Shown here one piece after another: positions 22,472 to 42,640 of a DNA stretch of 64,000 nucleotides. The number at the start of each line of letters is the position of its first letter. Positions within the stretch are counted from its first letter, which is position 1. Made by a program: the position numbers and the translations under genes. The DNA comes from Stappia indica (GTDB lineage Bacteria; Pseudomonadota; Alphaproteobacteria; Rhizobiales; Stappiaceae). The stretch covers positions 1,488,001 through 1,552,000 of the forward strand of contig NZ_CP046908.1 of the NCBI RefSeq assembly GCF_009789575.1, in the 5' to 3' direction. The notes beneath the pieces are model-generated. The model did no database searches, was not told the origin of the DNA, and saw only the letters and a program-made list of their open reading frames with translations.

Positions 22472-22547
22472 TGGTGGGCCCGGCAGGACTCGAACCTGCA
22501 ACCAATCCGTTATGAGCGGACGGCTCTAACCATTGAGCTACAGGCCC
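22472..22547 (-). tRNA. tRNA-Ile(CAU), lysidine-modified type
   Basis: A 76-nt cloverleaf including encoded CCA. The acceptor GGGCCTG pairs with CGGGCCC, the D stem is GCTC/GAGC, the anticodon loop CTCATAA gives anticodon CAU, and the T arm is GCAGG-TTCGAGT-CCTGC. The GGGCCTGTAGCTC start matches tRNA-Ile2, whose C34 is changed to lysidine by TilS to read AUA, rather than elongator or initiator tRNA-Met. It stands alone between the chemoreceptor and permease genes. Confidence 0.9.
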
Positions 22548-30239: not shown

Positions 30240-30516
30240 TTCCGGCGGGTCCTCTCTTCGGCGTCTTCCCGGGCAAGGCGAAGCCGCGACCCGGGACCGG
30301 AGAGCCACGGTGCCCGAGGCAGGCGTGAAGCGGTTCCACGAACACCCTCGGCGCTCCGATCCCGCATCTCCGCTCCGCTGCGTGCAGGATGACGAGGAGA
30401 GGGTTTCCGGTATCCTCGCTGCCGCTCTGGCAACCAATAGGCCCCGGCTCGCGCTTCGCTTGGCCGGGGTGACGGCAGAGAAGGGGCAAGGCCGTGCCTC
30501 CCCCTCGGAGGTCATC
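30240..30516. repeat. Palindromic intergenic repeats; left flank of the IS110 insertion
   Basis: Between the speE terminator and the insertion sequence there is no gene. There is a copy of the CCGGGCAAGGCGAAGCCGCG..CCCGGG palindrome (about 30268-30320) and, inverted, the unit with GCCGCTCTGG and GGCCGGGGTGACGGCAGAG (30418-30480). They belong to the same family as the clusters at 41.7-42.6 and 49.6-50.7 kb. The sequence up to ATC at 30514-30516 is the target half left of the element. Confidence 0.8.
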
Positions 30517-31486
30517 AACTCATATCGTTGAGGTGGTCTCTCATTCTTGCGTTGAGGATGACGACGATCTTTCTCATGAGCGCGGTTAGGGCGACGATGG
30601 GCTTCTTTCCGTTTGCGATGAGCCTCTGGAAGACGGGTCGCAGCGGCCCTTTGCAGCGTGCGGCGCTGAGGGCGGCCATGAAGAGGATGGAACGGATCTG
30701 CGGGCGTCCGCCGCGGGTCTTGCGGTAGCCCTTCAAGGTTCCGCTGTCGTTGGGGTGTGGGGCAAGGCCCGCCAGGGATGCGGCCTGCTTTCCGGTCATG
30801 GTGCCGAGCTCGGGCATGGCGGCGGCCAGGGAGATGGCGGTCCTTGGCCCCACGCCCGGCAGCGAGCGGTAGAGGGCGATACGCCTTGCGAGCAGGGTGC
30901 ATTGCGCGCAAAGGCCTGCGATGGCCGTGTCGATGGTCTCGATCTGGCGGTCGAGCGTTCTGACGAGGCTCCTGCAGGAGGCCGAGACCAGGGTGCATCC
31001 GGGCGACTTGGCGCGGTTGAGTTCGGCGCCGCGAATGGCCATGAGATCGTGCCTGCGGGCGACGAGCGCGGCGAGTTGCGCCTGGGTGCGATCGGCCGGG
31101 CGGTGGAGCGGAAGGTGGCGCCATCGCTCCTGGCCATAGGCGGCCAGCAGTGCGGCATCGATGGCATCGGTCTTGGCCAGTCGCCCGAAGGAACGGGCGA
31201 AGGCCCTGGCCTTGAGGGTGTCGGCGCGGTGGCAGGCGATGCCTGCGGCCGCGAGCTCTGCCAGCAGCAGGGCTTCGTGGCCGCCGGTCGGCTCGCAGAC
31301 GATGAGCGTCCCGGAGGGCAGGCCGGCGACCAGCTTGCGGATCGCCCGGGCCGTGTTGGCCACGGTGCTGGCCACGGTGCGGGCCACGGTGCAGGCGGCG
31401 GTGCCCGGCGCCGAACAGACGGCAAGGGTCAGCTTCGACACGTCGATGCCGACGACGTGGGACGGGGCATGTTCCAGAAAGGCCAT
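30515..31486 (-). CDS. IS110-family transposase (DEDD, serine C-terminal domain)
   Basis: A 323-residue recombinase. The N-terminal RuvC-like domain carries D15 (VVGIDVSK), E65 (VCEPTGGHE) and D107/D110 (KTDAIDAALLA). The C-terminal domain has SLPGVGPRTAISLAAAMPELG and the LAGLAPHPNDSG motif with the likely nucleophile S248. The ATG at 31486 is preceded by AGGAT. The stop codon is completed by the target: T is the last IS base and GA belongs to the core. A 12-bp tandem repeat (31353-31400) encodes TVA[R/S/N] four times near residues 33-44. Appears intact and potentially active. Confidence 0.92.
   Translation of the reverse strand: MAFLEHAPSHVVGIDVSKLTLAVCSAPGTAACTVARTVASTVANTARAIRKLVAGLPSGTLIVCEPTGGHEALLLAELAAAGIACHRADTLKARAFARSFGRLAKTDAIDAALLAAYGQERWRHLPLHRPADRTQAQLAALVARRHDLMAIRGAELNRAKSPGCTLVSASCRSLVRTLDRQIETIDTAIAGLCAQCTLLARRIALYRSLPGVGPRTAISLAAAMPELGTMTGKQAASLAGLAPHPNDSGTLKGYRKTRGGRPQIRSILFMAALSAARCKGPLRPVFQRLIANGKKPIVALTALMRKIVVILNARMRDHLNDMS
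31353..31400. repeat. Four 12-bp tandem units inside the transposase gene
   Basis: Consensus GTGnnGGCCACG on the plus strand, four units at 31353, 31365, 31377 and 31389. They encode the repeated Thr-Val-Ala-x motif in the linker after the first catalytic Asp. The frame is kept. Confidence 0.8.
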
Positions 31487-31506
31487 GGCGGTGGTATCCT
31501 GATCGT

Positions 31507-31665
31507 GCTTCGGATTGTTCGCGGGCGTGGTGTCAGCCAGAGGCCCAATCAACTCTCCAAGCGGGAAAAGGAAGCGGCAGGGACCATGATGACGACGGGC
31601 GAAAGCCCAATCCCGGTCCGGTCGCCTGCCACTGGTCTCCCGGCGGTTCAGGCCGGGAGACCACC
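31507..31665 (-). ncRNA. Predicted IS110 bridge RNA (target- and donor-binding loops visible)
   Basis: Read on the minus strand: a 5' stem-loop with 10-bp perfect arms (GGTCTCCCGG/CCGGGAGACC, 31634-31662). Next is a domain closed by GGCAG/CTGCC and GGACC/GGTCC whose internal loop holds CCGGGAT (31610-31616) and GTCATC (31588-31593), identical and complementary to the two target halves. The last domain is closed by GCTT/AAGC whose loop holds GAGTTGAT (31548-31555) and CGAACAATC (31513-31521), identical and complementary to the element ends. Both loops are capped by GGGC/GCCC stems. Transcript ends are not defined. Confidence 0.85.
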
Positions 31666-31693
31666 CAAACTCTACCATCTCTCCAGACGAACA

Positions 31694-31850
31694 ATCCCGG
31701 CCGCAGGCAAAGCCGGAGAGCCGGCAACCCATTGGCACCCTCAGCGGACGTGAGACGGGAGCGCATCGCCACCTCCACGGCTGTCATACCTGCGAAGGCA
31801 GGTATCCAGTATCCACCGGGGCGGACGGTGCCGCGAAGCCAGCCGCCACG
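31694..31850. repeat. Palindromic intergenic repeat; right flank of the IS110 insertion
   Basis: An inverted copy of the unit found at 41966-42094 and 42462-42590: ATCCCGGCCGCAGGC, the GGGTGCCAATGG complement, and the TACCTGC-CTTC-GCAGGTA-type hairpin near 31788-31806. Together with 30240-30516 it reconstructs the repeat interrupted by the insertion sequence. Confidence 0.82.
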
Positions 31851-31874
31851 GGCGTTCCCGCGGCAACGCCCCCC

Positions 31875-32972
31875 TCAGTCCCGCGCCTCAAGCCAGGCGG
31901 CAAGCCCGGCCCGGTCGCCGGACAGAACCCCCTCGGCCACCCGCCGGCCGACGGCGGCGCCGAACTTGTAGCCATGGCCCGAGCAAGCCGAGACGATGGT
32001 CAGCCGGTCTTCACCGGCGACCAGGAAATGCTCGTCCGCGGTGAACGTGTAGGCGCAGGTGACGACTTCGCTCACCCGGTACTCGGTGATGCGCGCAAAC
32101 GGCGGGGCGAAATGATCGCGCAGCCGCTCGCCCTCGCCGGGCTCCGCCACACGCCGCTCGTCGGCACCGGCGCGCATCTTGTGGATGCCCGCCCCCACCT
32201 TCAGCCCCGTGCCGCGCACCGGCGGCAGCACATAGCCGTCGACCGTGCCGCCGACATCGAGGATCACCGGCGAGGCCTCCCAGGCGGCAACGAGATCCGC
32301 CGGCGGGGCGAGATAGGCAACCGCCGTGCGATAGGAGGTCAGCCGGTCGGCAAGCTGCGGGAACAGCTGCAGCACCCAGGCGCCGGCCGTCACCACCACA
32401 TGATCGCCGGCAAGCTCCTCGCCGCCGGCAAGCCGCACCTTGCCCGCTGCCGCGTCCACCGCCTCCACCCGCGCTTGCGCGCGGATCGTCACGCCGGCGC
32501 GCCGAAGGAAGGCCAGCAGGTCGCGGCCGATATGCCGGCACAGCAGCACGCCGCCTTCCGGGCTGAAGGCGGCCGAATGCACCCCGCCGGGATCGAGGAA
32601 CGGGTGCCGGCGCACCGCCTCCTCGCAGCTCAGGTCCTCCACCGGATAGCCGCCGGCGACCAGGCTGTCGCGATAGTCCACGGCCGCGTCCCGCCCGGTC
32701 TGCGACACCAGCAGAAAGCCGGTATCGGCCAGGTGCTTGTCGCCGAGATCCGCCCACATCTCGTCCCAGGCCGCATAGGCCTCGTCGATGCGCCGCTGGT
32801 AGCCGCCCTGCGCCCCATAGGCGCGGCGGATGATCCGGTGATGGTCGCCCGAGGCCGACAGCGGATTGGGGATCGGCCCCTGTTCCACCAGCACCACCTC
32901 GACGCCGCGCTTGGCGAGCGACCAGGCAGTGGAGAGCCCGGCAATGCCGGCACCGACGACGATGACCTTCAT
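31875..32972 (-). CDS. FAD-dependent amine oxidase, monomeric sarcosine oxidase/N-methyltryptophan oxidase type
   Basis: A 365-residue flavoenzyme. The N-terminal dinucleotide motif GAGIAG (7-12), NPLSASGDHHRIIRRAYG (family S-x-G-x-x-R-I-I-R motif), C306 in CAYTFTADEHF (position of the covalent-FAD cysteine in MSOX) and CSGHGYKFGAAVG near the end all fit. It oxidises a secondary or N-methyl amino acid, giving peroxide and an aldehyde. GGAGG lies eight bases before the ATG at 32972. It follows the SnoaL-like gene by 47 bases and is probably co-transcribed. Exact substrate unknown. Confidence 0.87.
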   Translation of the reverse strand: MKVIVVGAGIAGLSTAWSLAKRGVEVVLVEQGPIPNPLSASGDHHRIIRRAYGAQGGYQRRIDEAYAAWDEMWADLGDKHLADTGFLLVSQTGRDAAVDYRDSLVAGGYPVEDLSCEEAVRRHPFLDPGGVHSAAFSPEGGVLLCRHIGRDLLAFLRRAGVTIRAQARVEAVDAAAGKVRLAGGEELAGDHVVVTAGAWVLQLFPQLADRLTSYRTAVAYLAPPADLVAAWEASPVILDVGGTVDGYVLPPVRGTGLKVGAGIHKMRAGADERRVAEPGEGERLRDHFAPPFARITEYRVSEVVTCAYTFTADEHFLVAGEDRLTIVSACSGHGYKFGAAVGRRVAEGVLSGDRAGLAAWLEARD

Positions 32973-41699: not shown

Positions 41700-42640
41700 C
41701 CGGGAAGACGCAGAAGAGAGGAAGAAACGCTCTCACATCCTCTCAGCCGTCACCCCGGCCGCGCGCAAGCGCAGAGCCGGGGCCTATTCATTCCCAGAGC
41801 GGCAGCGAAAAAACGCCCGCGCGAACCCCACGCTCAGCGTGTCATCCCGGTTTCGGCGCAGCCGAAGACCGGGATCCAGTAACCCCGAACGGTGCAACCC
41901 GAGCCCCGGCGGTGCCGCGAGAGCCCCTCGCCGAAGCTGTGGTGCCGCCGTCACGCCACCATCCGCCCGGCGGATACTGGATACCTGCCTTCGCAGGTAT
42001 GACAGCCGTGGGGGTGGCCGCGCCCATCCGCCTTACGCCCGCTGAGGGTGCCAATGGTTCCCGGCTCTCCGGCTTCGCCTGCGGCCGGGATGACGTCCGA
42101 GGGGGAGGAAAGGCCTCACATCCTTTCTGTCGTCACGCCGGGCAAGGCGCAGCCGCGACCCGGTGCCCATTGGCTGCCAGAGCGGCAGCGAAACACGCCG
42201 GCCATGCCCCACGCACTCTTCTCCCCCCTTGAGGGGGAGATGTCGGCGCAGCCGACAGAGGGGGGTGAGCAGCGCCCGCGACGGGGTGCCCTCCCCGCGT
42301 CCTCCCGGACGGCGCGTAGCGCCGAGCCGGAACCGGGGAGCGGCCCATCGGCGCATACGACCGACCGTCCCCACACCCGCTGCGGCTCGCCGGTCCCGGA
42401 TCGTCGGCCTCCGGCCTCGTCCGGAATGACGAAGGGAGAGGTTGGAGCGAAGACCCACACGCCCGGCGGATACTGGATACCTGCCTTCGCAGGTATGACA
42501 GCCGTGGGAGTGGCCGCGCCCATCCGCCTTACGCCCGCTGAGGGTGCCAATGGATCCCGGCTCTCCGGCTTCGCCTGCGGCCGGGATGACCTCGGAGAGG
42601 GAGGAGCGGCCGGGATGACACGTCCGACCGCAACACCCGC
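41700..42640. repeat. Cluster of palindromic intergenic repeat units
   Basis: About 0.95 kb without genes, built from several repeat types: CCCGGTTTCGGC-GCA-GCCGAAGACCGGG (about 41846-41873), the TACCTGCCTTCGCAGGTA hairpin unit (41966-42094 and again 42462-42590, two mismatches over 129 bp), the CCGGGCAAGGCGCAGCCGCG..CCCGG unit with GAGCGGCAGCG (about 42130-42190), and a CGGCAGC/GCCGGAG relative at 41751-41818. These resemble REP/BIME-type elements. The unit at 42083-42112 is an uninterrupted form of the IS110 target. Confidence 0.85.

What the first reader, a model, noticed from the sequence alone, without database searches (positions are those of the whole stretch)
30517..31693. IS110-family element with a readable bridge RNA that matches both its ends and its target
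The 207-bp non-coding stretch upstream of the transposase (31487-31693) folds into a 5' hairpin and two internal-loop domains. The first loop carries CCGGGAT and GTCATC, the same sequence as, and the complement of, the two target halves flanking the insertion. The second carries GAGTTGAT and CGAACAATC, matching the right and left element ends. Both loops are capped by GGGC/GCCC stems, and all four guides share the GAT/ATC core. This is the logic established for IS621-type bridge RNAs, found here by eye in an alphaproteobacterium.
Basis: partly seen in the sequence, partly recalled or inferred. Interest (0 to 1): 0.93.

Follow-up and report, generated by a model that had tools for sequence, protein, structure and literature searches.

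The report
RNA-guided jumping gene targeting genomic repeats

Summary
Window 30517-31693 (minus strand) is a 1,177-bp IS110-group element: a 323-aa transposase and a 207-nt upstream non-coding region with a 5' hairpin and two internal-loop hairpins. Guide words CCGGGAT, GTCATC, GAGTTGAT and CGAACAATC match left target, right target, right end and left end. The seven full copies found in the genome sit at the same point of a dispersed REP-like repeat; a sister genome holds the orthologous empty site. In five genomes, insertion sites follow a single guide base beyond site supply (33 of 44, 18.3 expected; a test chosen after seeing the data). A left-end change is matched by a guide change in the two diverged copies. 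Right target guide and left donor guide hardly vary, so they stay untested by covariation. Mechanism, layout and REP targeting are in print for IS110: new member of a known kind. Transcript, circle and activity are not shown.

The parts
30517..31693 (-). IS110-group element, 1,177 bp (left end at 31693, right end at 30517)
   Evidence: Five copies of 1,177 bp at 99-100% identity at different places; empty sites
30515..31486 (-). Transposase/recombinase, 323 aa; D15, E65, D107, D110 and S248 in GLAPHPNDSG (catalytic assignment inferred from conservation and the motif G--P----SG given in PMC11187229). Its TGA stop uses the last element base plus two bases of GAT
31507..31663 (-). Predicted bridge RNA, about 160 nt (exact ends not determined)
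   Evidence: The region is 88% identical in the two diverged copies, whose elements are about 72-73% identical; the intact diverged protein is 63% identical
31633..31663 (-). 5' hairpin TGGTCTCCCGG/CCGGGAGACCA
   Evidence: In one search, 8 of its 11 pairs have a two-sided change, but only 73% of cells pair (alignment register differs between clades), and RNAalifold did not return it
31574..31632 (-). Target-binding hairpin (internal loop, GGGC/GCCC cap)
   Evidence: stem 98% of cells paired, cap 80%
31610..31616 (-). Left target guide CCGGGAT
   Evidence: Same letters as the left flank; covaries with flanks among relatives
31588..31593 (-). Right target guide GTCATC
   Evidence: Complement of right flank GATGAC; nearly invariant among relatives
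31507..31562 (-). Donor-binding hairpin (GCTTGG/CCGAAGC stem, GGGC/GCCC cap)
   Evidence: stem invariant in 21 of 21, so no covariation support
31548..31555 (-). Left donor guide GAGTTGAT
   Evidence: Same letters as right end plus GAT; nearly invariant
31513..31521 (-). Right donor guide CGAACAATC
   Evidence: Complement of GAT plus left end; matching change in the two diverged copies
31669..31674 (-). -10-like TAGAGT; its -35-like TTGATT exists only in the circle, made of right end, core and left end
   Evidence: sequence match only, 8 of 12 consensus bases
31694..31793 (-). Left flank: first half of the interrupted repeat, ending CGGCCGGGAT (core AT at 31694-31695)
30417..30516 (-). Right flank: second half of the repeat, beginning GATGACCTCC (core AT at 30514-30515)

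Best explanation
An IS110-group insertion sequence of a Stappia-like alphaproteobacterium that transposes by RNA-guided recombination. Inferred cycle: the recombinase excises the element as a circle; the joined ends recreate a promoter (TTGATT-18-TAGAGT) that transcribes a bridge RNA of about 160 nt; [quoted passage not shown] the recombinase exchanges strands at an AT core. Shown by sequence: ends, empty sites, guide matches, left-guide covariation with flanks, RNA structure conservation, family motifs in the enzyme. Not shown: transcript, circle, activity.
For: The 7 full copies found in the genome have left flanks ending CCGGGAT or, in one, CCGGGGT, and right flanks beginning GATGAC. Orthologous empty site in G364. 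Guide-flank match 7.22 of 8 own against 5.54 permuted and 6.38 permuted within clade, 0 of 100,000 permutations each. First core base: guide A with GAT 20, GGT 5 (four genomes); guide G with GGT 13, GAT 6 (one genome), against site supplies: 33 of 44 matched, 18.3 expected, simulated p 5e-6. Left end TTCG to TTTG with guide CGAA to CAAA in the diverged copies. Structure counts: 13 pairs with two-sided changes, shuffled mean 5.4, 0 of 500 reach it. Closest solved proteins ISCro4 9t56 (E 8.6e-22) and IS621 8wt6 (E 1.2e-19). Split promoter is the best-scoring one at 20 of 21 joined junctions read.
Against: Imperfect guides: 2 of 69 copies match at 5 of 8 and 9 at 6 of 8. Copies L010 and L013 share a left-guide change (CCGTGAT) that fits the repeat less well, yet occupy two sites. 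The right donor guide is not fully complementary to the left end in Pleomorphomonas and CTSoil, G306, G313 and G358. Right target guide and left donor guide barely vary, so covariation cannot test them. The donor stem never varies; RNAalifold did not return the 5' hairpin; the count of further pair types was reached by 13 of 500 shuffles. No RNA data.
Confidence: 0.95

Rival explanations
1. The element targets the repeat by protein-DNA recognition or by homology; the resemblance between the non-coding region and the flanks is incidental or regulatory.
For: The relatives read share the right target half GATGAC (61 of 61 junctions read), and the Stappiaceae ones share much of the left half, so flanks vary less than they could.
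Against: Left guides vary with flanks across 16 distinct guide words, also within clades; insertion sites follow the guide base beyond site supply; the non-coding region is more conserved than the rest of the element between the two versions in this genome.
Confidence: 0.03
2. A decayed element: the guides are relics and this copy no longer moves.
For: One diverged copy (L014/L051) is frameshifted; L010 and L013 have a changed left guide; three short right-end remnants exist.
Against: The window copy has an intact 323-aa frame, the family motifs and four intact guides; five copies are 99-100% alike at different sites.
Confidence: 0.1
3. The upstream structured region is mainly a cis-regulatory leader or small-RNA regulator of the transposase, as reported for ISPpu9 (PMC8450116, abstract seen in a listing only).
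For: It lies directly upstream of the start codon and folds strongly.
Against: Does not explain four guide words matching target and ends, nor the covariation. It could act in addition.
Confidence: 0.03

Closest known systems
IS621 (IS110 group, E. coli), bridge RNA system
   Same: RNA in the left end upstream of the gene; 5' stem-loop, then target loop, then donor loop; guides that include the core; promoter recreated at the circle junction; REP targets named for IS110 elements; recombinase of similar length (323 aa; the IS621 chain in the PDB is 328); second core base T nearly invariant, first variable (PMC11208160 sections 5, 6, 7, 12 and 20 and passages; PMC11208158 passages)
   Different: Core AT (IS621: CT); target CCGGGATGAC; distant protein (E 1.2e-19 to the IS621 chain); other hosts
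ISEc21 and other IS110-family elements with seekRNA (PMC11187229, one section and passages read)
   Same: Longer non-coding region upstream of the gene, guide matches to both target strands, transposase with the G--P----SG motif
   Different: ISEc21 transposase is 358 aa; its target was not compared here
REP-targeting IS110 elements ISRm19, ISPpu9, ISPpu10, ISPa11 (PMC1525189, passages read)
   Same: IS110 elements whose counted copies lie in REPs; ISRm19 is in an alphaproteobacterium (4 of 4 copies)
   Different: The guide RNA was described only in 2024; relation of ISRm19 to this element not tested

Membership tests
[quoted passage not shown]
   both above cut-off; D15, E65, D107, D110 and S248 invariant among four relatives
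IS110 family | Site-specific insertion around a short core | tested here: met
   7 of 7 copies at the same kind of site, core on both sides, GAT once in the empty site
IS110 group (as against IS1111) | Longer non-coding end upstream of the gene | tested here: met
   207 nt upstream; the stop codon overlaps the right end
IS110 group (as against IS1111) | No long subterminal inverted repeats | not tested
   None seen by eye; no search was run
Bridge RNA | 5' hairpin plus target-binding and donor-binding internal loops | tested here: met
   Both loops by RNAalifold; 5' hairpin by single-sequence fold and pair counts, not by RNAalifold
Bridge RNA | Left target guide covaries with the left target | tested here: met
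Bridge RNA | Right target guide and left donor guide match right target and right end | tested here: inconclusive
   They match in the window, but are almost invariant among relatives, so covariation cannot be tested
Bridge RNA | Right donor guide complements left end | tested here: met
   Exact in the window; matching change in L014 and L015. Imperfect in Pleomorphomonas, CTSoil, G306, G313, G358
Bridge RNA | Promoter recreated at the circle junction | tested here: met
   Sequence match only: 20 of 21 junctions read, of 26 elements tried; 7 to 9 of 12 consensus bases, with a scoring rule favouring -10 boxes that begin TA
Bridge RNA | Expressed RNA that binds the recombinase and is needed for recombination | not testable with these tools
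   Needs RNA-seq and biochemistry

The most novel reading that the evidence does not exclude
A REP-specialist IS110 lineage across several alphaproteobacterial genera in which the left target guide evolves with the host's local repeat dialect (guide words such as CCGGGAT, CCGGGGT, CCTAGGAT, CCTGGGAT, CCGAGGAT, GCGAGGAT, GCAAGGAT, CGTAGGAT), while right target guide and left donor guide stay nearly frozen: natural half-reprogramming that lets one element family follow its landing pad through speciation. The sub-lineage whose guide fits less well (L010, L013) hints at mismatch tolerance or guide RNA supplied in trans by sister copies.
Probability: 0.55. Interest if true: 0.45.

Novelty: new member of a known kind. 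Interest (0 to 1): 0.36.

Why it matters
It shows that bridge-RNA guide logic can be read and tested from sequence in an alphaproteobacterial lineage. Its 69 natural insertions, 44 of them in genomes whose site supply was counted, are a ready dataset for guide specificity, mismatch tolerance and which DNA contributes each side of the core, and it is a candidate recombinase with an AT core and GC-rich targets. It does not change the known mechanism.

Tried and rejected
Rfam: the only gathering-level match of the window is a tRNA far away; the 12 sub-threshold hits in 30400-31900 look like chance. The first Pfam scan used a span that was not in the gene's frame and found nothing; repeated correctly. 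Plasmid collection: no near match; 31 records with proteins under 60% identity, not used further. Viral contigs: two distant relatives. My first parsing dropped rows; the final count puts back L010, L013, L056 and five G350 copies (L056) and removes L092, a duplicate of L063. L044 and L045 appear to be the same places as L053 and L054 and were never in the count. Of the 92 loci given to, 22 are not counted: distant or unparsed relatives (L065, L067-L069, L071, L076-L078, L080, L081, L083, L094, L095, L110, L111, L133-L136) and truncated ones (L061, L091, L093). The structure alignment used 21 of the 24 stretches prepared (L013, L060 and L079 left out as near-duplicates). The site-supply test was thought of after the A/G pattern was seen; it uses five Stappiaceae genomes with CCGGG-type guides (G306 left out because its guide differs upstream; G300, G313 and TSB10P1A, one copy each, not used). 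Per-genome p values are 0.001, 0.045, 0.058, 0.14 and 0.40; only the combined test is strong, and some copies share left flanks (L084 and L101; L099 and L104; L122 and L126), so independence is not assured. Right-junction reads were missing for 8 of 69 copies. Structure prediction, a covariance-model search and a transposase tree were not run.

Full report
What is there. On the minus strand, 30517-31693 is a 1,177-bp element between the end of a polyamine-synthase-like gene (plus strand, ends 30125; name from my reading of the translation) and an oxidoreductase-like gene (minus strand, ends 31875; likewise). It holds one gene, 30515-31486, 323 aa, with both IS110 transposase domains. The 407-aa ORF listed is this frame run on through the 207-nt region upstream. 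The genome is one 5.12-Mb contig. The closest named relative found is Stappia sp. TSB10P1A, 91% identity over residues 1-182 at a contig end, so the host is probably Stappia or close kin.

Ends and target. The element's flanks are two halves of a dispersed repeat. Five copies are 99-100% identical and two are about 72% identical to the window element. In all seven the left flank ends CCGGGAT (CCGGGGT in L013) and the right flank begins GATGAC. Six of the seven were matched by the joined window flanks on the left side; L013 lies in a divergent version of the repeat, and in L015 only a short piece of the right flank matched. Empty repeats mostly read CCGGGATGAC with GAT once, filled ones CCGGGAT-TGTTCG...GAGTT-GATGAC. 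The 13-mer CGGCCGGGATGAC occurs 27 times in the genome, its reversed control 0 times. In sister genome G364 the same intergenic place is empty and carries GAT once; in the sister with the best match, G146 (97%), the two genes lie about 90 bp apart and this repeat is missing. The G364 empty site folds as a long imperfect palindrome (z -4.07), reminiscent of paired REPs (recalled).

Guides. I collected relatives from named genomes and from unnamed Stappiaceae (13 of 87 genomes with a match at E 1e-60) and read left guide and left flank in 69 copies of 27 element types with 16 distinct guide words. Own guides match own flanks at 7.22 of 8 positions; shuffling guides among types gives 5.54, shuffling within three clades (drawn by me) 6.38; none of 100,000 shuffles reaches the observed value in either scheme. 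By copy: 30 match at 8 of 8, 28 at 7, 9 at 6, 2 at 5. The window copy matches at 7. Examples: CTSoil CGTAGGAT with CGTAGGAT, M. neociceri CCTGGGAT with CCTGGGAT, P. diazotrophica GCAAGGAT with GCAAGGAT. Counter-examples: Mesorhizobium WSM4311 CCTGGGAT with flank CCAAGGAT; P. oryzae GCGAGGAT with GCGGGGAT.

Site supply as control. A flank could fit a guide just because the genome is full of that repeat. I counted sites of two variants (CCGGGATGAC and CCGGGGTGAC) in genomes with several copies: G000 71:73, G367 27:39, G358 132:93, G350 76:94, G301 144:67. Insertions (GAT:GGT) were 6:1, 5:1, 6:1 and 3:2 for the four genomes whose guide ends in AT, and 6:13 for G301, whose guide ends in GT although its genome offers twice as many GAT sites. 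In all 33 of 44 insertions fit the guide base, 18.3 expected (simulated p 5e-6). Limits: the test was chosen after the pattern was seen; single genomes give p 0.001 to 0.40; the G guide is one genome; some copies share left flanks. If the target's first core base were sometimes replaced by the donor's A, the AT-guided counts would be inflated, while the G301 result would be understated.

Donor side. In the two diverged copies the left end changes TTCG to TTTG and the right donor guide changes CGAA to CAAA. The same TTCG/CGAA or TTTG/CAAA pairing holds in G367, Mesorhizobium and Aquibium, but Pleomorphomonas, CTSoil, G306, G313 and G358 have one or more mismatches. The right junction reads GAGTTGATGAC in 61 of the 61 copies where it was read, of 69. 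Right target guide and left donor guide are nearly invariant, so they are not testable by covariation. The left junction shows a variable first core base (A or G) while the right shows the donor's AT. This agrees with IS621, where the top strand is cut after the core, T is almost invariant and AT or GT cores also work (PMC11208158, passages).

RNA. Single-sequence fold -84 kcal/mol, z -3.51. RNAalifold on 21 sequences returns both internal-loop hairpins, 5 of 27 pairs with two-sided changes, but not the 5' hairpin. With the structure I named, 88.8% of cells pair (shuffled 83.5), 13 pairs have two-sided changes (shuffled 5.4, 0 of 500), further pair types were reached by 13 of 500 shuffles, and sliding the partners drops pairing to 58% or less. 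By helix: 5' hairpin 73% of cells paired, target stem 98%, target cap 80%, donor stem 100% and invariant, donor cap 95%. In the genome the region is found at the seven copies and is 88% identical in the diverged ones. Joined ends give TTGATT-N17/18-TANNNT as the best promoter in 20 of 21 junctions read, of 26 elements tried; scores are 7 to 9 of 12, my scoring favoured -10 boxes beginning TA, and the -35 rests on invariant end bases, so these are not 20 independent findings. In the integrated element the left flank reads GGGATT where the circle has TTGATT.

What is known. Bridge RNAs with this layout, position, guide logic, circle promoter and REP targets are described for IS621 and its kin and predicted in 85.7% of IS110-group elements catalogued in ISfinder (PMC11208160, sections 5, 6, 7, 12 and 20 read, passages). 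The seekRNA paper describes guide RNAs for IS110 and IS1111 elements, with instances of natural redirection (PMC11187229, one section and passages). REP-specific IS110 elements, one in Sinorhizobium, were reported in 2006 (PMC1525189, passages). Searches for Stappia with IS110 (2 papers) and for bridge RNA, IS110, REP, covariation, target site and Rhizobiales (3 papers holding at least four terms) listed no paper whose title or abstract is on this lineage (open-licence library only, papers not opened for this).

Verdict. The reading is right, the element is a new member of a known kind, and interest is moderate: the value lies in the clean natural dataset, not in a new mechanism.

Noticed in passing
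window 42082-42094, 42578-42590, 42607-42619: Three further unoccupied copies of the target word CGGCCGGGATGAC inside the window, in a cluster of the repeat.
   Followed up: partly
L010 and L013 (other copies in the same genome): Two copies share a changed left target guide (CCGTGAT) and other differences, so a sub-lineage with a less fitting guide occupies two sites: mismatch tolerance, guide RNA from sister copies, or other causes.
   Followed up: partly
L016, L021, L024: Short right-end stretches (45-60 nt) of the element at 85-96% identity, apparently debris of older insertions.
   Followed up: no
L051 (same place as L014): One of the two diverged copies carries a frameshifted transposase, the other (L050, same place as L015) is intact.
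   Followed up: no
window 31363-31400: A short in-frame tandem repeat in the transposase (TVARTVASTVANT) that three relatives lack in part, and where the copies differ from each other.
   Followed up: no
window 30515-30517: The transposase stop codon TGA is completed by GAT and overlaps the right-end donor site, so the last codons may double as donor recognition sequence; three relatives end in the same Ser.
   Followed up: partly
L133-L136 (genome G306): A second, distant IS110 group (37% protein identity to the window element) with five copies in one genome; target and guides not read.
   Followed up: no
window 22475-22547: A tRNA gene on the minus strand, the only gathering-level Rfam match of the window.
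   Followed up: no
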